A stretch of 64,000 nt of DNA from Pseudomonadota bacterium (GTDB lineage Bacteria > Pseudomonadota > Gammaproteobacteria > Burkholderiales > Nitrosomonadaceae), in the NCBI GenBank assembly GCA_018240285.1, contig JAFEGA010000002.1, positions 1 through 64,000 of the forward strand. The letters are read 5' to 3'. This document shows, in pieces, positions 6,339 through 25,376 of the stretch. The notes under the pieces were generated by a model. The model was not told where the DNA came from and did not search any database. It worked only from the letters and a program-made list of their open reading frames with translations. Position numbers and translations under genes: made by a program. Each line of letters opens with the position of its first letter. Position 1 is the stretch's first letter.

Positions 6339-7439
6339 TTAGTGATCCATTCCAGCTTTTGCATCAAAGCTGGCTGGTTTTTTCAGTTGGGTCATGATGT
6401 CATCATTCCAAGCGCCTTCAACATTCATGTGAGCAGCAGCACCCAGCAATACAGCTTCAATCAGGTTATGACTGAGGTATACATGTAAACCAGGTTGATG
6501 GAATTCATACGCTGCAGCAACTGCGGCACCTGCTGGAACAAACCAGGTTTCTTGGTTGGTCAGAGGCGCATCGCCAAATGAACCGCCAACCCAGTACAGG
6601 TCACCGTGTCCACCGATCAAGTGTGGATAGGAAGGACGGTTAGCTTGCGAGTGAATGAACAGAACTTTCTCGCCCACTTTAGCTTTCAGTGCGTTGTCGC
6701 CGGTCAGCGCGCCAACTGCGCCGTTAAATACTACGTGTGTTGGGATGAGTCCTTTAGCAACTTCCAGCATGTCGGCCATGCCTTCAGCTGGCGAAGCGTA
6801 GGATTTGAATTTTCCGCTAGCATCTTTCGGCAGATAGAAATCTTGCTCACCGATGTAGTAAGCGCGATCATACTTGTATGGTTTGCCTTTGTTGTCTTTC
6901 AGGCCGTCTTTAGGCAATACCATAATGGCGCCGCTCATACCAGAAATAACGTGGAACGGAATCATGGTTCCGCCAGGTGCGCAGTGATAAACGAACACAC
7001 CAGATTTAATTGCTTTCCAACGCAGTACAACTTCTTCACCTGGTTGAACCAGAGTCAAACCAGCACCACCGAGTGCGCCGGTTGCAGCGTGAAAGTCTAC
7101 GTTATGCGCCAATGTGCTTGTTTTTGGGTTTTTTAATGTTAATTCAACATAATCGCCTTCATGAACGACGATGAGCGGACCAGGAACGCTGCCATTGAAA
7201 GTCAGCGCCCAAACTTTTGCGCCTGGAGCAACTTCGATCAGTTTCTCCACGGTTTCCATGGTAACTTCAACGACTTTTGGTCCTTTTGAAGTTTGCTCAT
7301 GTGCAGGTACATTTGGTGGAGCCACCAATGTTTGTTTTACACGTGGCAGTTTAGAAATGTCTGGTGCAGCAGCAACCGCTTGTGTTGCGCCTAAACAGAG
7401 CAATCCTAAACCAACCATTGCTTGAACAGCTTTAATCAT
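6339..7439 (-). CDS. nirK: Copper-containing nitrite reductase
   Basis: NirK reduces nitrite to NO in the periplasm; in ammonia oxidisers it supports tolerance to nitrite and efficient ammonia oxidation. All copper and catalytic features are visible: [14 protein letters not shown] (type 1 His, catalytic Asp, type 2 His), YHCAPGG...PFHVISGM (type 1 Cys, His, Met and type 2 His), [11 protein letters not shown] and LSHNLIEA (type 2 His). A signal peptide ends near AAAAPD. The start used is the ATG at 7439, because GGAGGGAGA lies 1-9 bases before it; a longer frame begins at 7451. The gene is alone here, without the multicopper oxidase and cytochrome genes (ncgABC) that precede nirK in N. europaea. 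It ends in a strong hairpin. Confidence 0.96.
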
Positions 7440-7452
7440 ATCTCCCTCCATA

Positions 7453-12062: not shown

Positions 12063-12144
12063 CTATCTACAAAAGTATAATTAAAGCAGGAGTTAAAATA
12101 TTAAGTATCACTAATGCATCAACAGTCTGCCATATTTGATAACT

Positions 12145-15100
12145 ATGACTGACCCCAATCGTACCATTAGAAAACTAGCAGAAATCACCGATGCGGCATT
12201 GTTTGAAAGACTTGCAACTGCTGTTTTGAGGTCCTACAAGCCGTCTCTTTATGAAAACCTAAGTCACCCTGGCGTAAACTCAGATGGTAAAACCGTCAAA
12301 GCACCACTTGATGGCATTGGATGGATACGCGATATCGGCGGCGATAGAGTCATTGCGGCAGCACACTCGACATGTAAGCAAGATGATATTGAGAAAAAAT
12401 GGCTCCATGATCCTACTACTGCTAAAACACGAAAGACCGGCAGTAAACCATCAACTCCAGAAGGCGATTTGCGCAAAGCGATCCGGGAAATAAACGCTTT
12501 CCGCCAAGATCAAACTAATCTTCAAGCAACTCTTGCACTAACCAGTAATCGCGAACCAAGCCAAACAAGCATCGTAACCGCACAGCAATTAGCTTCGAAA
12601 GCAGGCATTGATCTTGACATTTGGTCTGCTTCCAGAATCGCTCAATACTTGGATTCAGCTCACGGACAATGGCTGCGAAAAGTATACTTTGGTGATTCTG
12701 TAGAGTTTGTATCTGCTGAGTTGTTGCAATCATGTACCCAGAGAAATCTGCTTGGATACATTCATTTGATGAGCTCCGCGGAGCTTGTGGATCGAGAAAC
12801 TTCAATACAGCGTTCTTCAGGTCATACGCTACTAGTTGGCCCTTCGGGCGTTGGCAAAACAACAATAGCACTTCAAATTCTGAACCGCCATGCTGAAGCA
12901 GGTGGGTTTGGGCTTGTAATTCCACATGAAACCGTAGTCTTGGCTACAAGTTTGACGGAAGCTATTGATATTGAATTACGCAAGCTGGAGCCCGATTTAC
13001 AGGCTGGCTCGGGTCACCAGGCATTGTCTCTAGCCTCTGAAAATCTTCCGTTCATTGTTGTCATTGAAGATATTAATGCTGCAAGCGATCCACCAATGGT
13101 TCTCAACAAAGTGGTGAATTGGGTGTTATCAAGCAACACTGATTCAATTATCCAATGGCGGCTTATATGTCCAGTCTGGCCTCGATACATTGATTCTCTC
13201 AATCAAAAATTAAAAAATTCACATATTTCTATGTTGCAAGCTGTGGATGTTTACACCGATGGGCAAGCTGAAGAAGCCATACAAAAAAAGAGTCAAATGG
13301 CCGGAAGCACATTATTGCCAGCTACAATCTTATCAATTGCAAAAGCACTCGGTAATGATCCTCTTCTAATCGCTTTATACGACTTTACAAATTTACCCGA
13401 TGCAATAAAAGTGGTTGATCTATACATAGAAAGAGAATTAGCTCTAGTAGCATCCAACTCATCCAGCTTCCACCGATCCGATGTCAGTGATGCCATTGAC
13501 AATCTTGTGCGGCAGATGCTCATTAAAAGAAAACTGAACCCAACCTTGAGAGAAATCAATGATTGGTTTCGGCAAGGGCCGAGGGAACGTGAAATATTGG
13601 GCCATGTCTTTAAGGCAAGTAGTGTATTCCGGCTTGTTCATCGAGGCAGTGCGGATGTTTTAATACCTCGGCATGATCGAGTATTACTATCGCTTTTTAG
13701 TCATATTATGAGTGAAGATCTGCGAAACAATAGGATAAATGAAGAATATTTAACCGATCCTTTTTTTGCAGAAGCAATGGGATTGGCAATCCTGCACTCA
13801 CAATCCGAACTTGATCAATTGAATTGGTTAATACAGACAAATCCACTTTCTCTGTTTTATGCATTTCATCTCTCGGGAAAATCAAGCTCATCAAACCTGT
13901 CAGCAATAATTCATCTAATAAAAAATTGGCTTTCAGGCAAGGATTCGCACCGTGTAAAGTTTCGAACCGTTCGTTTTATTGTTCTACAGATTCTGGCGGA
14001 GACCGATTCTGTCGATGTACTGGCAATAACAAGCCTATTTTCAAAGGAAAATCAAAATTACCATTGGTACAAAGCCCGGTTCAGGAATGGTGATCTTGGC
14101 GCAGGTTTAAATTTGCTGACATTATTTGAATTTGGAACCAGAATATCAGGCCAAGATGAACTATTAAAACATGTCCTTGCGCGCTCCGGCTCTCAGATTA
14201 CACAAGAGTTGATAAAATTATTAAACATTCCAAACTTAAATAAACGAATTAAGACGGGATGTCTCTACCTTGCTGGCTACCTTGGCAGTCCATTACTTGC
14301 ACCAGCGATACTTACTTCCTGGAACTTCGACAAGCCTGAAAATCGAGAACTCAAAGCTTATCTTTGGGCTTCCGCCAGATGTTATAACGCCGAAACAGAT
14401 AATGTTTTAGAGTCCGTATGTGATGTATGGGCAGAACTGCCTGAGAGTAAAGAGGATCAGGATTTCAGTTTAACAATATATAGCTTGGCAGCATACCGAA
14501 TTTCTTGGGAGTTCCGTCGCTACTTGCCTTCCGCTGCGATTCCATATTTTGTTGGAAGAGCATGCACCGATAATCGATTGGAATGGCCAATTACATACAT
14601 GCTGCGCAACATCGATCATCCAGTTGCTGTTGAGCATATTGCTAGATTCATAGCCAATCGTAATCGAAATCTGCAACCAGGTATGTTCGATCCCAGTCCC
14701 AACTTTTTATTAAATGAGTGGGAGCGTCAGCAACGCGAAGATGGAATCCGAATGTCATCAGCTTCCAAAAACAGATTACTAGAACTTGCATTCGATCCCA
14801 CAAATGACTTACCACTGAGAAAATCGGCATTCCGAGTATGGGAAGTGTCTCAGTCGCCTGGAGATATAAATCATATTAAGCAAATTGATAAAACAAGTGA
14901 TCTGCACGAAAAAGCCATATGGGCTAGAGCTCGAAGAGGTGACAAAACTGTCATACCACAGCTAATCGAATTAATTCAAACAAACCCGAGCTACTGGTGG
15001 CAAGCAGGACGTTATTTATGGTCAAACGAAATGACCGAAGCACTTCACCAAAGTATTAAAATTATGTCGAATAACATAAAAACTTATCGTAACAATGAAA

Positions 15101-15504
15101 CTGATACTGAATGGATTCTTTCAGAAAGAATCATGGAAATTGATCAGCGATCGGCCGAGCACATTGTTCTTCAAGAATGGGAAAATTTGAAGTATTCACC
15201 CCGATTCGTTCAAGTTGCTTTGTATCTTGCAACCCCTCAACTGGCACAATTAGCGAAAGAAGCAATCGCACAAGCAGCTGAGCCAGCCAAATTCCTGAAG
15301 CACGTAACGATGCATTTTGGTTGGAAAACTCAAGGACGTACCGGGATTACTCGCTTTGAGCAAGTAAAACTGCTCTGTGATTACATAGAGCTTTTGTCAG
15401 AACACGACATCTATGCGCTTTGGGAGTTATGTAACGAACGCAATTGGATTGATTTCAGGAAAATGTATCTTGACGAGAGGCTCGCACAAACAGAACATTT
15501 TTGA
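12145..15504 (+). CDS. Large P-loop (STAND-like) NTPase, candidate defence protein
   Basis: A 1119-aa protein I do not recognise by name. Residues 1-180 form an N-terminal domain with DGIGWI around D56 and AAAHSTCK...KKW around 72-85, a layout loosely like a PD-(D/E)XK nuclease domain but with His in place of the usual acid. Walker A is GPSGVGKTT (G232-T240); a Walker B-like strand FIVVIEDIN is at 303-311. About 700 helical residues follow, probably repeat-like, without clear catalytic motifs. Effector-like N-terminus, NTPase and long helical C-terminus is the plan of STAND/Avs immune proteins. It is AT-rich next to GC-richer gshB and metE, suggesting transfer. ATG at 12145 is used; an in-frame TTG lies 9 bases upstream and no clear ribosome-binding site is present. 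A 103-aa gene follows after 6 bp. Confidence 0.7.
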   Translation: MTDPNRTIRKLAEITDAALFERLATAVLRSYKPSLYENLSHPGVNSDGKTVKAPLDGIGWIRDIGGDRVIAAAHSTCKQDDIEKKWLHDPTTAKTRKTGSKPSTPEGDLRKAIREINAFRQDQTNLQATLALTSNREPSQTSIVTAQQLASKAGIDLDIWSASRIAQYLDSAHGQWLRKVYFGDSVEFVSAELLQSCTQRNLLGYIHLMSSAELVDRETSIQRSSGHTLLVGPSGVGKTTIALQILNRHAEAGGFGLVIPHETVVLATSLTEAIDIELRKLEPDLQAGSGHQALSLASENLPFIVVIEDINAASDPPMVLNKVVNWVLSSNTDSIIQWRLICPVWPRYIDSLNQKLKNSHISMLQAVDVYTDGQAEEAIQKKSQMAGSTLLPATILSIAKALGNDPLLIALYDFTNLPDAIKVVDLYIERELALVASNSSSFHRSDVSDAIDNLVRQMLIKRKLNPTLREINDWFRQGPREREILGHVFKASSVFRLVHRGSADVLIPRHDRVLLSLFSHIMSEDLRNNRINEEYLTDPFFAEAMGLAILHSQSELDQLNWLIQTNPLSLFYAFHLSGKSSSSNLSAIIHLIKNWLSGKDSHRVKFRTVRFIVLQILAETDSVDVLAITSLFSKENQNYHWYKARFRNGDLGAGLNLLTLFEFGTRISGQDELLKHVLARSGSQITQELIKLLNIPNLNKRIKTGCLYLAGYLGSPLLAPAILTSWNFDKPENRELKAYLWASARCYNAETDNVLESVCDVWAELPESKEDQDFSLTIYSLAAYRISWEFRRYLPSAAIPYFVGRACTDNRLEWPITYMLRNIDHPVAVEHIARFIANRNRNLQPGMFDPSPNFLLNEWERQQREDGIRMSSASKNRLLELAFDPTNDLPLRKSAFRVWEVSQSPGDINHIKQIDKTSDLHEKAIWARARRGDKTVIPQLIELIQTNPSYWWQAGRYLWSNEMTEALHQSIKIMSNNIKTYRNNETDTEWILSERIMEIDQRSAEHIVLQEWENLKYSPRFVQVALYLATPQLAQLAKEAIAQAAEPAKFLKHVTMHFGWKTQGRTGITRFEQVKLLCDYIELLSEHDIYALWELCNERNWIDFRKMYLDERLAQTEHF

Positions 15505-20598: not shown

Positions 20599-23049
20599 TT
20601 AATGAATTTTTTGCTCAATTATCTCTCGCGCCTCTTTAAGTGCAATCTTACATTGATAGATATATCGATGATGTTTAGCATGCTCTGCTTTGGTTAAAAC
20701 AGTTTCAATAAATCGCATGACTCCTTCTTTGGCCTCAATACTCATATGCTCCACATACATTTTTACGAATGGTAACAAATTTGTTGCTACTTTATATGGA
20801 TAGTGGTCGCCATCATTAAACTGAGGAAGCAATAATGATTTTGCTTTATTCAGTTGATTTTCTGCATCAGCAATTGGCAAAGGCACACTGTTACCAGTGA
20901 CTGCATTTTCCAAAATATATCTTGCATAATGATTATCTATATATTTAGTGTCATATCCAGATCGGCTTACACCATATGCGGCGTTAAAATATTTCTCAGC
21001 TTGTGGAAAATTGCCTAAAAATAATTGGCATATAGCGTATTGCAACCAAAACTGAGGATCATTTTCATAACCATACTCTTGTTTAATTAAATCATAGATT
21101 TCTTCAATTGCCTCTAACGATTTTGTTTGAGTATTGGGAAGTAGTTGTTGGATCAAACGAAACTGAATAATTCTTGTAGGGAATTTACGATGAACACTCG
21201 AAACCCCATAATTCTTAGCATTTTTTATTGCATTAACTAAGCACCGGATAAGCACATCAAGTGGTACGAATTTACGAATGATAGTCTCTGCAACAATTGC
21301 AGAAACTGTTCTTACTATATTTGGTGATTTCAACTGTATTAACGATTTAACACCACTTGAATTCGCCAGAAGTTGCCGTAATGGCATTGTGTTCACAAGA
21401 TCATCAACTACATCTTGACGAAGCTCTACAGCTTGAGTAACAGTTAAAATTAGACACATCAACAGACCATCAAAGTCTTTATTTCTAAAATCAATATCTC
21501 CAAAAGATTTCTTTAGATTATCAATCGCACTTGGTGACTTTATTACACCAAGTAAAATACCCCTAATTTGATTTGAAACCTCACTTCTAATTACTTTGTT
21601 TTTATAATAGTCTGGAGCTCCTTGAAGTTCCTCCCACAATCCGTGAACCTGTAATAAATTGACAAAATCAGAACGTTCTTTATCACTTAACTCATCAATT
21701 TCAAATTCGATAGGGCGGCTATCTGCTGAATTCTGTATGAGTTTACTTTCTATTGAATCATAACGGATTGTTCTATCGGCAATGACAAGCACATCGCCTT
21801 TTCTAATTAATCTTTGAATATCCTTAATACAATTCAGTCGTTCCCCATTGCCACAATCATCAACTAAGAATGCAACATTTCTTTGTTCAACATTAAAAAT
21901 TGTTTGAATATCTTTTGACCAATTTCTGCTGGTATCTACAAGCATAAGAACACAGTAACCCTTTTCAATTAATGCACGGGAAAGCTGATAAAGAGCAATG
22001 CTTTTTCCATTTGATATTTCGCTAATAATAGAAAAAAAATTAGAATGTTCTTTCGTAAGATTATTAATAATGTCACTAACAACTTGTCTTTGGACGGTGT
22101 ACTTGCCATGATTTTCCACTTCAGGCATTAGTAACAAATCTTCATTGGAAAACCCAGAAGATAATAGTTTGAACACATCAGGATTTGACGGGCGTAATGG
22201 ATTTCTTGGAATTTTAAGTTCATTAAACGCCTCGAAACTCTCTGGTAATTTTCGCAAAGCTAAACGATCTATTTTTGATAAAGATTCTGCAAAGCCGACT
22301 ACACCGATTGGACAAAATGTACCAAAGTCATCAAGCATAATTTCTAGATCACTATCACCATCTTCTTTAATGATGAAAAAAGTCTTGTCTGCAATATCCA
22401 ATCCACACTGATATAGAGTTTTTGCAATATCCAAATCGTTTAATGAATATCCAATAAAAAATATAGCTTTTGCAGCCCTAAGATCATGTTTCAATTGGTT
22501 ATGCCAGCCTGAACCAAAGAACTCCCCAGCAGCATAACCAGGCAATGTTATAACCAAATTGGTTTCAATATTGTCTGATGAAATCTTGTCAATAAAACCG
22601 TGAATATGAATACATGTACGAGGATTATGTGAGAATTCCTCCACTTTAGATGCTACTGTTGCAGAAAGCACTTTTCTTCCAGCTTGAGCAGCTGCTTTTT
22701 CATAACCATCATCAAAGTTTGTAGTGTAAATTCGAGCCCAGTTTTCACTAGCTATCTTTATAGCCGACTCCATAGATTCAGTTTCAATACGAACAGTAAA
22801 TCTTTCTCGAAGAAAATTGATGTAATTTTCATTGCCAATCTTCTTTAGTAGTTGAGTGGCGGCAACTCTTAAATCTTTTGTTGATTTGCCATTACATTCG
22901 CTCACCATTTCGTCAGCGAGATTGTTACCAGTAGGTAAAGGTCGAGATTTAATGTCTTTAAAAAGAGTGGAGAAGCCTGCTCCAAGAAAAAGAATAGCAT
23001 TACCCTGAATAGCATGTTGCAGTGCATCATTGAACAACATCTTTGGCAT
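20599..23049 (-). CDS. SIR2-domain STAND-like protein, candidate NAD-depleting defence protein
   Basis: An 816-aa protein. The N-terminal SIR2 domain shows FLGAGFS (residues 21-27), TTNFD (109-113), IHIHG (147-151) and FIGYSLNDLDI near 200, the core NAD-binding and catalytic set. The NTPase region follows: SNGKSIALYQL with GKS at 348-350, a shortened Walker A, and VAFLVDD near 390, a Walker B. The C-terminal 400 residues look helical and TPR-like (EEIYDLIKQEYGY...LFLGNFPQAEKYFNAAYG). SIR2 fused to a STAND NTPase is known in antiphage systems such as Avs5, which deplete NAD on infection. The gene is strongly AT-rich against metR and stands alone. AAGGGA about 10 bases before ATG supports the start. 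Confidence 0.82.
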   Translation of the reverse strand: MPKMLFNDALQHAIQGNAILFLGAGFSTLFKDIKSRPLPTGNNLADEMVSECNGKSTKDLRVAATQLLKKIGNENYINFLRERFTVRIETESMESAIKIASENWARIYTTNFDDGYEKAAAQAGRKVLSATVASKVEEFSHNPRTCIHIHGFIDKISSDNIETNLVITLPGYAAGEFFGSGWHNQLKHDLRAAKAIFFIGYSLNDLDIAKTLYQCGLDIADKTFFIIKEDGDSDLEIMLDDFGTFCPIGVVGFAESLSKIDRLALRKLPESFEAFNELKIPRNPLRPSNPDVFKLLSSGFSNEDLLLMPEVENHGKYTVQRQVVSDIINNLTKEHSNFFSIISEISNGKSIALYQLSRALIEKGYCVLMLVDTSRNWSKDIQTIFNVEQRNVAFLVDDCGNGERLNCIKDIQRLIRKGDVLVIADRTIRYDSIESKLIQNSADSRPIEFEIDELSDKERSDFVNLLQVHGLWEELQGAPDYYKNKVIRSEVSNQIRGILLGVIKSPSAIDNLKKSFGDIDFRNKDFDGLLMCLILTVTQAVELRQDVVDDLVNTMPLRQLLANSSGVKSLIQLKSPNIVRTVSAIVAETIIRKFVPLDVLIRCLVNAIKNAKNYGVSSVHRKFPTRIIQFRLIQQLLPNTQTKSLEAIEEIYDLIKQEYGYENDPQFWLQYAICQLFLGNFPQAEKYFNAAYGVSRSGYDTKYIDNHYARYILENAVTGNSVPLPIADAENQLNKAKSLLLPQFNDGDHYPYKVATNLLPFVKMYVEHMSIEAKEGVMRFIETVLTKAEHAKHHRYIYQCKIALKEAREIIEQKIH

Positions 23050-23397
23050 GATTAAAATCCCTTATAAATTATGTAGTCGTCTCTGGGTTTACGACTTCAA
23101 TCACTAAGCTGTAAGCAATCAGTGTGTCGGTGATGAAGTTCGAATGCAGGTCTCGAGATTTCTTCGGGAATGTCTTCGAATTTCAAATGGAAAATTGGGA
23201 TACTACGGTTGTTCATATCGCTACACTTTCACATCTTCTTGCTATTTTCAAATAAACAAATAGATAGAGCATATTCAGATTCTGTTGATTAGTTTCAACA
23301 AGTATATTCTATTGCCTGGATTTAAATTATAACAATTCATATTCCTCACACTCTGCAATATGCAGCTGAAGAACTCTCCTCACTAGGAGCGAAAATT
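23050..23397. other. Intergenic, upstream of the SIR2 gene
   Basis: AT-rich and without a convincing gene. A 39-codon frame (23097-23216, minus) with an ATG and no clear ribosome-binding site is the only reading frame of note, and I do not support it as a gene. The promoter of the SIR2 gene should be here. Confidence 0.5.
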
Positions 23398-23454
23398 TTG
23401 AATTAACAATCAAGCCTGCTAGCCTTTTTCATTAGTAGTTTTCTGGCTGCTCGA
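23398..23454 (+). pseudogene. Vestigial copy of the yqaA 5' end
   Basis: These 57 bp align without gaps to 24957-25013, the first 19 codons of yqaA, at about 70% identity. The translated remnant is LN*QSSLLAFFISSFLAAR against MDEQSSLLALFTSSFLAAT in the intact gene. Most changes are silent or conservative, plus one stop and loss of the ATG. It is a decayed duplicate of the gene start, with the fic gene between the two copies. Confidence 0.7.
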
Positions 23455-23523: not shown

Positions 23524-23565
23524 CATTTGCCATTTGCCATTTGCCATTTGCCATTTGCCATTTGC
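23524..23565. repeat. Heptanucleotide tandem repeat, (CATTTGC)6
   Basis: Six perfect head-to-tail copies of CATTTGC. The array lies 35 bp beyond the stop codon of the minus-strand fic gene, outside any supported reading frame. Copy number of such repeats usually changes by slipped-strand mispairing, so it may vary between strains. Confidence 0.95.
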
Positions 23566-23599: not shown

Positions 23600-24646
23600 T
23601 TAAGGCAAGCTATACCAGGTCGACCGACCGCCGCCATGGCGTGTCAGAAAGCCCTTTTCAACCAGTGACGTGAAAGTTGCTTTAAGTGTATTCGGGCTTG
23701 CGCTGGTTTCGCGCACCATGTCGCGGGTGGTGACGCGGCCATGGTCGCGCACATAATCCATAATTTTGACGGCCAGCTCTGGCAGAGTAGCGAGCGCGTT
23801 CTTCTCGCGCTCGACTTTCACGGCCAGGCGGCGCTTTTGCTGCTGCAAGGCGCGCAGGAAAAACAGCAGCCAGGGCTGCCAGTCTGGAGCTTCGGTGCGG
23901 ATAGTGCTTTGAGTCTGGCGTAAAGCCAGGTAGTAGCTTTCTTTGCTGTTCTCGATCACACTTTCCAGTGACGAATACGGTACATAAGCATAGCCTGTCT
24001 GCAACAACAGCAAGGTGGTCAGGATACGGCTCAGGCGGCCGTTGCCGTCCTGGAAGGGATGAATTTCGAGGAAGGTGACGATGAAGATACCGGTTATCAG
24101 TAGCGGATGAAGACGCGCCAGCTCGCGGGCATCCTTCAGCCAGCTGACAAGCTCCTGCATCCGGCGCGGTGTATCGAACGGTGAAGCCGTCTCGAACACG
24201 ATGCCGATCATCTTCCCGTCCGCATCAAAGGCTCCCACGTCATTGCGCAGGGTTTTGTATTCGCCACGATGCCGCTCGTCCTTGTCGCTGTAGCGTAACA
24301 GGTCGCGATGAAGCTGCTTGATGTGATTTTCCGTGACGGGAATGTCGGCCCAAGATTGGAAAATGGTTTCCATCACCTCGGCATAGCCTGCAATTTCCTG
24401 CTCGTCACGGCTAGTGAAGCGTTTGATTTCAAGGTTGGCCAGCAGGCGCTCCACCTCGCGGTCGGCCAGCTTGCTGCCTTCGATACGAGTGGAAGAGCCG
24501 ATACTTTCGATAGTGGCAATGTGACGCAGCGCTCTCAGGCGCTCAGGCGCAAGAGAACCAAGTGCGCGCCAAGCGCCTTTGAATTCATCAATCTCGGCAA
24601 CCAGCGCAAGGAGATCCGGTGTAATCTGAATCCTATCCGTCTTCAT
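23600..24646 (-). CDS. Class II Fic protein with C-terminal winged helix
   Basis: A 348-aa Fic/DOC enzyme, probably an AMP-transferase. The catalytic motif HPFQDGNGRLSR begins at H196. The N-terminal autoinhibitory motif (S/T)xxxE(G/N) is present as STRIEG (52-57), so the enzyme is class II and likely silent until released. The C-terminal 60 residues form a winged helix (VTTRDMVRETSASPNTLKATFTSLVEKGFLTR). Four ACCGGAAT-like repeats sit directly above the start, which has no clear ribosome-binding site, suggesting autoregulation. It lies between a vestigial and an intact yqaA start, consistent with acquisition. Its target protein is unknown. Confidence 0.9.
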   Translation of the reverse strand: MKTDRIQITPDLLALVAEIDEFKGAWRALGSLAPERLRALRHIATIESIGSSTRIEGSKLADREVERLLANLEIKRFTSRDEQEIAGYAEVMETIFQSWADIPVTENHIKQLHRDLLRYSDKDERHRGEYKTLRNDVGAFDADGKMIGIVFETASPFDTPRRMQELVSWLKDARELARLHPLLITGIFIVTFLEIHPFQDGNGRLSRILTTLLLLQTGYAYVPYSSLESVIENSKESYYLALRQTQSTIRTEAPDWQPWLLFFLRALQQQKRRLAVKVEREKNALATLPELAVKIMDYVRDHGRVTTRDMVRETSASPNTLKATFTSLVEKGFLTRHGGGRSTWYSLP

Positions 24647-24956: not shown

Positions 24957-25376
24957 ATGGACGAACAATCAAGCCTGCTGGCGTTATTCACCAGCAGTTT
25001 CCTAGCCGCGACGTTACTTCCCGGTGGATCGGAAGCAGTACTCGTGGGGGTGTTGCTGGCTTATCCCGATCTGCATTGGCAAGCGTTGGTTTTGGCAACG
25101 ATTGGCAATACGCTGGGCGGAATGAGTTCGTATCTGATCGGCCGGTTGCTGCCGGACGAAAAGACCGTGCTGAAAAAAGCCGGGGGAAATGCGCGCGGGC
25201 TGGAGTGGGTGCGGCGGCATGGTGCGCCGATTCTGCTGTTATCGTGGGCACCGTTGATTGGTGATTTGTTGTGTGTGGCGGCGGGGTGGTTGCGCACCAA
25301 TTGGTTGTGGGCGTTGCTCTTTATTGCTGTGGGGAAGTTTGCCCGGTATTGGGCGATTGCTGCTGCGGTTAATTGA
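24957..25376 (+). CDS. yqaA: YqaA family (DedA/VTT-like) membrane protein
   Basis: A 139-aa inner-membrane protein with a re-entrant start (FTSSFLAATLLPGGSEAVLVGVL), LATIGNTLGGMSSYLIGRLL, and a C-terminal pair of segments (ILLLSWAPLIGDLLCVAAGWL, ALLFIAVGKFARYW). This is the YqaA type of SNARE-associated/VTT proteins. DedA-like proteins take part in lipid or proton-dependent membrane functions; the role of YqaA is not settled. A degenerate copy of its first 57 bp lies 1.5 kb upstream. It converges with grxD. Confidence 0.85.
   Translation: MDEQSSLLALFTSSFLAATLLPGGSEAVLVGVLLAYPDLHWQALVLATIGNTLGGMSSYLIGRLLPDEKTVLKKAGGNARGLEWVRRHGAPILLLSWAPLIGDLLCVAAGWLRTNWLWALLFIAVGKFARYWAIAAAVN

What the first reader, a model, noticed from the sequence alone, without database searches (positions are those of the whole stretch)
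20599..23049. SIR2-STAND-like single-gene defence candidate
The 816-aa protein has a complete SIR2 catalytic set, a shortened Walker A (NGKS) and a TPR-like C-terminus, in strongly AT-rich DNA between metR and fic. It probably depletes NAD on phage sensing. The shortened P-loop sets it apart from canonical STAND proteins.
Basis: inference. Interest (0 to 1): 0.6.

Follow-up and report, generated by a model that had tools for sequence, protein, structure and literature searches.

The report
Distant Avs5 (SIR2-STAND) antiphage gene
This is a single bacterial gene that very probably makes infected cells destroy their own NAD when it senses a phage; it is a very distant new member of a known immune family (Avs5), parked in a chromosomal spot where related bacteria keep other antiphage genes.

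Summary
In detail: an intact 816-codon gene (20599-23049, minus strand; GC 34.8%, third-position GC 24% against 57-69% in neighbouring genes) encodes SIR2 + STAND NTPase + helical repeats. It is an Avs5 (AVAST type V) protein of the EfAvs5 lineage. Its best relative of known structure is EfAvs5 (PDB 9JAP; phmmer 9e-61; family profile 5e-251; Foldseek 2e-40; VIA Z 29.7 over 777 residues); second is the AVAST5 filament (9NC9). At most 27% identity to any of 90 homologues, so it is a deep branch. The 'shortened' Walker A is wrong: the loop has normal length (SEISNGKS). Position 1 is Ser in 63 of 91 family members, including EfAvs5, and GK is invariant. Unusual are Ser346 (Gly/Ala/Cys elsewhere) and HG where most relatives have NG. 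Context supports immunity. In 13 genomes of the genus with intact metR-dedA synteny, six sites are empty, and occupied ones include Avs5, Dsr1, two SIR2-SEC-C-like genes and Olokun. The window copy sits beside a 41-codon oloA pseudogene, so it apparently replaced an Olokun system. Function in this organism is inferred, not shown. New member of a known kind; interest modest.

The parts
20599..23049 (-). avs5-like gene, 816 aa: SIR2 - STAND NTPase - helical (TPR-like) repeat protein
22360..23034 (-). SIR2 NADase domain (about aa 6-230; catalytic N111, D113, H150)
   Evidence: PF13289 45.7 bits; superposes on KomC, ThsA, DSR2 SIR2 domains, Z 20-22; conservation
21745..22101 (-). STAND NTPase core (Walker A SEISNGKS 343-350, Walker B AFLVDD 393-398, R426)
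   Evidence: PF25199 nSTAND_NTPase5 36 bits over cut-off 34, coordinates; motifs
20602..21300 (-). C-terminal helical repeat (probable sensor) region, about aa 584-816, with the conserved Y652, W668-x-Q670
   Evidence: AlphaFold2 secondary structure; W668 91/91, Q670 99%; role as sensor inferred
23058..23063 (-). Shine-Dalgarno-like AAGGGA 8 nt upstream of the ATG
   Evidence: sequence
23112..23234 (-). pseudogene remnant: codons 1-41 of an Olokun oloA (76% identical to the OloA of relative G013; stop at codon 2)
   Evidence: tblastn E 6e-13; 82% DNA identity over window 23088-23447; the G013 protein is OloA, 289.8 bits
23405..23450 (+). degenerate copy of the start of dedA (80% identical to 24964-25009), scar of earlier site turnover
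23600..24646 (-). fic gene (Fic + winged helix), a separate occupant of the same site, not thought to be part of the system
   Evidence: PF02661 63 bits; 92-94% identical in G029 and G013 without avs5

Best explanation
The gene encodes a divergent Avs5 (AVAST type V) protein of the EfAvs5 lineage. At rest the C-terminal repeats fold onto the STAND NTPase. On binding a phage protein the NTPase switches (nucleotide bound by K349/S350, D397/D398, R426), the proteins assemble, probably into a helical filament, and the clustered SIR2 domains hydrolyse NAD+ (N111, D113, H150), stopping the infection. Shown here: the intact gene, domain order, catalytic and nucleotide-binding residues, full-length similarity to EfAvs5 by sequence and predicted structure, foreign composition and a defence-hotspot location. 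Inferred from characterised relatives: phage trigger, filament assembly and NAD loss. The trigger is unknown.
For: Full-length match to EfAvs5 (9JAP): phmmer E 9.2e-61, family profile E 5.2e-251 over profile 4-805, Foldseek 1.9e-40, VIA Z 29.7 with 777 residues aligned. Second match the AVAST5 filament 9NC9 (Foldseek 2.4e-17, Z 20.9). SIR2_2 and nSTAND_NTPase5 over Pfam cut-offs. In 91 homologues N111, D113, G348, K349 and W668 are invariant. Residues shown to be needed in PaAvs5-1 (PMC12931631: N110, D112, G362, K363, E410, R438) and the conserved Y661, W675, Q677 have counterparts with nearly the same spacing. Foreign composition. Same-site relatives carry Dsr1 (2118 bits), Olokun OloA/OloB (290/510 bits) or SIR2-SEC-C-like genes. 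Eleven SIR2_2 genes in nine relatives, three at this site, 0.016 expected.
Against: At most 27% identity to any homologue. The protein misses the NCBIfam Avs5 equivalog (NF041814, no match at E<=1) and the PADLOC Avs5 model, though EfAvs5's near-twin misses them too. Walker A positions 1 and 4 are Ser; Ser at position 4 is unique in the 91-member set. No expression or activity data. A SIR2 domain alone does not prove NADase activity.
Confidence: 0.88

Rival explanations
1. A decayed Avs5: the gene is intact but its P-loop (SEISNGKS) no longer works, so it is an inactive relic in a turnover hotspot.
For: Position 4 Ser occurs in no other member of 91; it lies next to pseudogene debris; long terminal branch, 1.21 changes per column.
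Against: Reading frame intact; all invariant catalytic and nucleotide-binding residues kept; confident fold, pLDDT 90.4; G348-K349-S350 intact.
Confidence: 0.07
2. A SIR2-STAND protein with another role, for example plasmid exclusion or a stress-regulated NADase, not phage sensing.
For: The trigger is unknown; several homologues sit on plasmids.
Against: Nearest characterised relatives (EfAvs5, PaAvs5) are antiphage (PMC12931631); site neighbours in relatives are antiphage systems.
Confidence: 0.1
3. The gene works together with the adjacent fic gene as a two-gene system.
For: Same strand, adjacent.
Against: 551-bp gap filled with pseudogene debris; fic has native composition (GC3 0.66) and occurs at the same site without avs5 in G029 and G013; Avs5 is a single-gene system.
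Confidence: 0.04

Closest known systems
EfAvs5 (SIR2-STAND, PDB 9JAP; near-twin WP_206343558.1 on an E. coli IncF plasmid)
   Same: Full-length collinear: SIR2_2, STAND NTPase with NGKS, R426, W-x-Q repeat motif; non-Gly first position of Walker A
   Different: 24% identity; EfAvs5 has NG instead of HG and Gly at Walker A position 4; its N-terminus is about 15 aa longer, with a further insertion before the TTNxD motif
AVAST type 5 filament 9NC9 (and NCBIfam NF041814, Avs5)
   Same: SIR2-STAND-repeat architecture, full-length structural match Z 20.9
   Different: 17% identity; window protein is below detection by the NF041814 model
PaAvs5-1 (PMC12931631)
   Same: Domain order; counterparts of N110, D112, K363, E410, R438, Y661, W675, Q677
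   Different: PaAvs5-1 has NG, canonical GPAGSGKT and an nSTAND3 annotation; direct alignment not done (sequence not at hand)
Dsr1/Dsr2, ThsA, KomC
   Same: SIR2 NADase domain, Z 20-22 for the SIR2 domain
   Different: They lack the collinear STAND NTPase plus repeat body; similarity is confined to the SIR2 domain or is loose beyond it
SAMD9 (human)
   Same: Whole-model fold similarity, Z 19.4 over 654 residues, as reported before for PaAvs5
   Different: 10% identity

Membership tests
Avs5 / AVAST type V (broad sense) | N-terminal SIR2-like domain (PF13289) with GAGxS and TTNxD | tested here: met
   45.7 bits over cut-off 24.5; GAGFS, TTNFD
Avs5 / AVAST type V (broad sense) | HG or NG catalytic motif | tested here: met
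   H150-G151; family 68 N, 21 H, 2 Y
Avs5 / AVAST type V (broad sense) | Central STAND NTPase | tested here: met
   nSTAND_NTPase5 36 bits over cut-off 34; GK invariant
Avs5 / AVAST type V (broad sense) | nSTAND3 annotation (PF20720) reported for PaAvs5 | tested here: inconclusive
   16.6 bits, below 27.2; EfAvs5 near-twin 33.2
Avs5 / AVAST type V (broad sense) | C-terminal helical repeats with conserved Y and W-x-Q | tested here: met
   Y652, W668, Q670; helices 584-815
Avs5 / AVAST type V (broad sense) | Full-length fold like solved Avs5 proteins | tested here: met
   9JAP Z 29.7 over 777 residues; 9NC9 Z 20.9 over 672; large rmsd, probably because the model is closed and the solved forms are filaments (inference)
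Avs5 / AVAST type V (broad sense) | Phage-triggered NAD+ hydrolysis | not testable with these tools
   needs experiment
NCBIfam NF041814 (Avs5 equivalog, narrow sense) | Score of 1000 bits | tested here: not met
   no match at E<=1; EfAvs5 near-twin L002 also has none; 11 of 53 homologues match weakly, best 7.5e-13
Dsr1 | NF041818 over 1400 bits, full length | tested here: not met
   12.5 bits, SIR2 domain only
Thoeris ThsA | SIR2 followed by a SLOG domain | tested here: not met
   ThsA model matches only residues 7-214; a STAND NTPase and repeats follow

The most novel reading that the evidence does not exclude
The metR-dedA interval of this genus is a previously undescribed small defence hotspot biased toward SIR2 effectors, and here an Avs5 gene captured the upstream region of an Olokun operon that it displaced, so that immune effectors of different families may be swapped behind one retained control region.
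Probability: 0.35. Interest if true: 0.5.

Novelty: new member of a known kind. Interest (0 to 1): 0.33.

Why it matters
It extends Avs5 to a probably ammonia-oxidising genus with a very deep branch, and shows that the standard Avs5 profiles miss the EfAvs5 lineage, so Avs5 is undercounted. The natural SEISNGKS P-loop and HG motif are ready-made variants for testing what the STAND switch and the SIR2 site really need. The site records a defence swap (Olokun to Avs5) that can be read in the sequence.

Tried and rejected
Shortened P-loop as a distinguishing trait: rejected. Fic as a partner: rejected. Search with the single protein in genome contigs found nothing; the alignment found 119 relatives. 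Phage records: no match. NF041814 searched in 369 genomes of the class: no match, also none in controls, so uninformative. PF25199 in relatives rings everywhere below cut-off, uninformative. No paper for 9JAP or 9NC9 in the held library; their identity comes from the PDB titles. Tree placement of the window protein is unresolved: no starred set holds it, so I do not assign it to a subclade within the family, and whether HG arose independently here is undecided. Genus check by amoA in the own assembly found nothing.

Full report
The observation. The window holds an intact 816-codon gene at 20599-23049 on the minus strand. Its GC is 34.8% and its third-position GC 24%, against 57-69% third-position GC in gshA, gshB, tenA, metE, metR, fic, dedA, prmC, prfA and hemA around it, so it is very probably an imported gene. 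It has an AAGGGA site 8 nt before the ATG.

Domains. Pfam finds SIR2_2 at about residues 106-230 (45.7 bits, cut-off 24.5) and nSTAND_NTPase5 at 316-434 (36 bits, cut-off 34); nSTAND3 and TPR_12 are below cut-off. An AlphaFold2 model on 81 homologues is confident throughout (pLDDT 90.4, pTM 0.85): a SIR2 domain, an NTPase core with strand 338-343 and helix 349-362 flanking the P-loop, and mostly helices from 456 to the end.

Which family. The best solved relative by sequence is 9JAP (phmmer 9.2e-61, residues 14-730; profile of the family 5.2e-251). PDB titles name it 'Helical structure of EfAvs5(SIR2-STAND)' and the second best structural match, 9NC9, 'Helical assembly of AVAST5 filament'. VIA-align gives Z 29.7 over 777 residues for EfAvs5 and 20.9 over 672 for 9NC9; the large rmsd fits a closed model against filament conformers (inference). 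A protein on an E. coli IncF plasmid (L002) is almost identical to 9JAP over its whole length and 24-25% identical to the window protein. NF041814 (Avs5 equivalog) and the PADLOC Avs5 model miss the window protein, but they also miss L002, and 11 of 53 homologues touch NF041814 weakly. I therefore file it as Avs5 in the broad sense used by PMC12931631, EfAvs5 lineage, and not as the NF041814 equivalog.

Residues. Across 91 homologues from Proteobacteria, Bacteroidota, Firmicutes, Chloroflexota, Nitrospirota and others, W104, T110, N111, D113, G151, G200, D205, G348, K349 and W668 are invariant. The published work on PaAvs5 (PMC12931631) shows N110, D112, G362, K363 and E410 to be needed, R438 to matter, and Y661, W675 and Q677 to be conserved. 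The window protein has N111, D113, G348, K349, D397, R426, Y652, W668 and Q670 in the same order and nearly the same spacing. These correspondences rest on motifs and spacing, as the PaAvs5 sequence was not at hand.

The P-loop. It is not: SEISNGKS (343-350) fills the eight positions of GxxxxGK[ST]. Position 1 is Ser in 63 of 91 homologues and Gly in 23; EfAvs5 itself has SDLGNGKS. Only Ser at position 4 (residue 346) is unique to this protein; the rest have Gly 78, Ala 10, Cys 2. Nucleotide binding is therefore expected, but not shown.

HG versus NG. The window protein has the classical HG; 68 homologues have NG, 21 HG (this one included) and 2 YG. PMC12931631 reports a near one-to-one mixture in Avs5 and partial activity of the N-to-H change in PaAvs5-1. 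The tree leaves the window protein unresolved on a long branch, nearest identity 27%.

The site. In the closest relatives the genes gshA-gshB-tenA-metE-metR-...-dedA-grxD-prmC-prfA-hemA are collinear. Thirteen genomes of the genus, the window included, show metR and dedA as neighbours in that order. The interval is empty (about 90-170 bp) in G025, G006 and G026 and, from coordinates, in G004, G428 and G002. It holds a 221-aa membrane-like ORF in G034, a 165-aa ORF plus fic in G029, Olokun OloA/OloB plus fic in G013, Dsr1 in G022, related SIR2 proteins of 660-699 aa with a SEC-C-like end in G031 and G020, and Avs5 plus fic in the window. Nine of these relatives scanned for SIR2_2 carry 11 such genes, three of them at this site where 0.016 would be expected for a 5-kb target (P about 7e-7, or 1e-4 if the two related genes count once). 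The calculation treats genes as randomly placed and is rough; defence genes cluster anyway.

A defence swap. Directly upstream of the SIR2 start, 23112-23234 translates on the minus strand to codons 1-41 of OloA (76% identical to the G013 OloA, E 6e-13) with a stop at codon 2, inside 360 bp that are 82% identical to the G013 upstream region. No OloB remnant was found. The simplest reading is that an Olokun operon stood here and was replaced by the Avs5 gene, leaving its start and upstream region. A 46-nt degenerate copy of the dedA start at 23405-23450 is a further scar, also present in the G013 stretch. Whether the old promoter drives avs5 is unknown.

Mechanism. By analogy with EfAvs5, 9NC9 and PaAvs5: repeats sense a phage protein, the STAND module switches, the protein oligomerises into a filament and SIR2 hydrolyses NAD+. 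Only the anatomy is shown here. The trigger cannot be predicted; PaAvs5 systems respond to JADA of nucleus-forming phages (PMC12931631), but nothing here says that this one does.

Organism. Four of five same-genus genomes tested carry three amoA-type genes each and the window has a nirK-like gene (6339-7451, recognised from its sequence), so the genus is probably Nitrosomonas; amoA was not found in the window's own 48-contig assembly. The genus name is inference.

Verdict. A real, intact, probably functional, highly divergent Avs5 in a defence hotspot. Known mechanism, new member; the swap and the hotspot are the parts worth a second look.

Noticed in passing
window 12136-15504 (+): 1122-aa STAND-like protein (P-loop GPSGVGKT, weak AAA_16, long helical-looking C-terminus), GC 42% and GC3 35%, between gshB and a small ABM-like gene; in relative G029 those two genes are only 25 bp apart, so this is a second inserted islet. 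It matches no known defence model well.
   Followed up: partly
L146 6614-10332 (relative G013): Complete Olokun-like OloA/OloB pair (289.8 and 510.1 bits) between metR and fic at the site where the window carries Avs5.
   Followed up: yes
L148 10106-13936 (relative G022): Dsr1 (1277 aa, 2118 bits), the only SIR2_2 gene found in that genome, in the same metR-dedA interval.
   Followed up: yes
L147 10025-12121 and L149 10187-12166 (relatives G031, G020): Related SIR2 proteins with a C-terminal SEC-C-like CPCGSGEKLRFCC motif and no close match to a named system; possible uncharacterised SIR2-SEC-C defence family.
   Followed up: partly
L003 1441-3900 (relative G020): Another EfAvs5-lineage gene (819 aa, NG motif, GDLGNGKS) elsewhere in a same-genus genome, only 24% identical to the window protein.
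   Followed up: partly
window 23524-23565: Tandem 7-bp repeat (CATTTGC, about six copies) just beyond the 3' end of fic.
   Followed up: no
L002 4905-7454 and window 20599-23049: PADLOC and NCBIfam Avs5 models do not recognise even a near-twin of EfAvs5, so automatic annotation misses this lineage.
   Followed up: partly
window genome G000: No amoA-type gene found in the 48-contig assembly although four of five same-genus genomes tested have three copies each; probably collapsed or missing repeats in the assembly.
   Followed up: no
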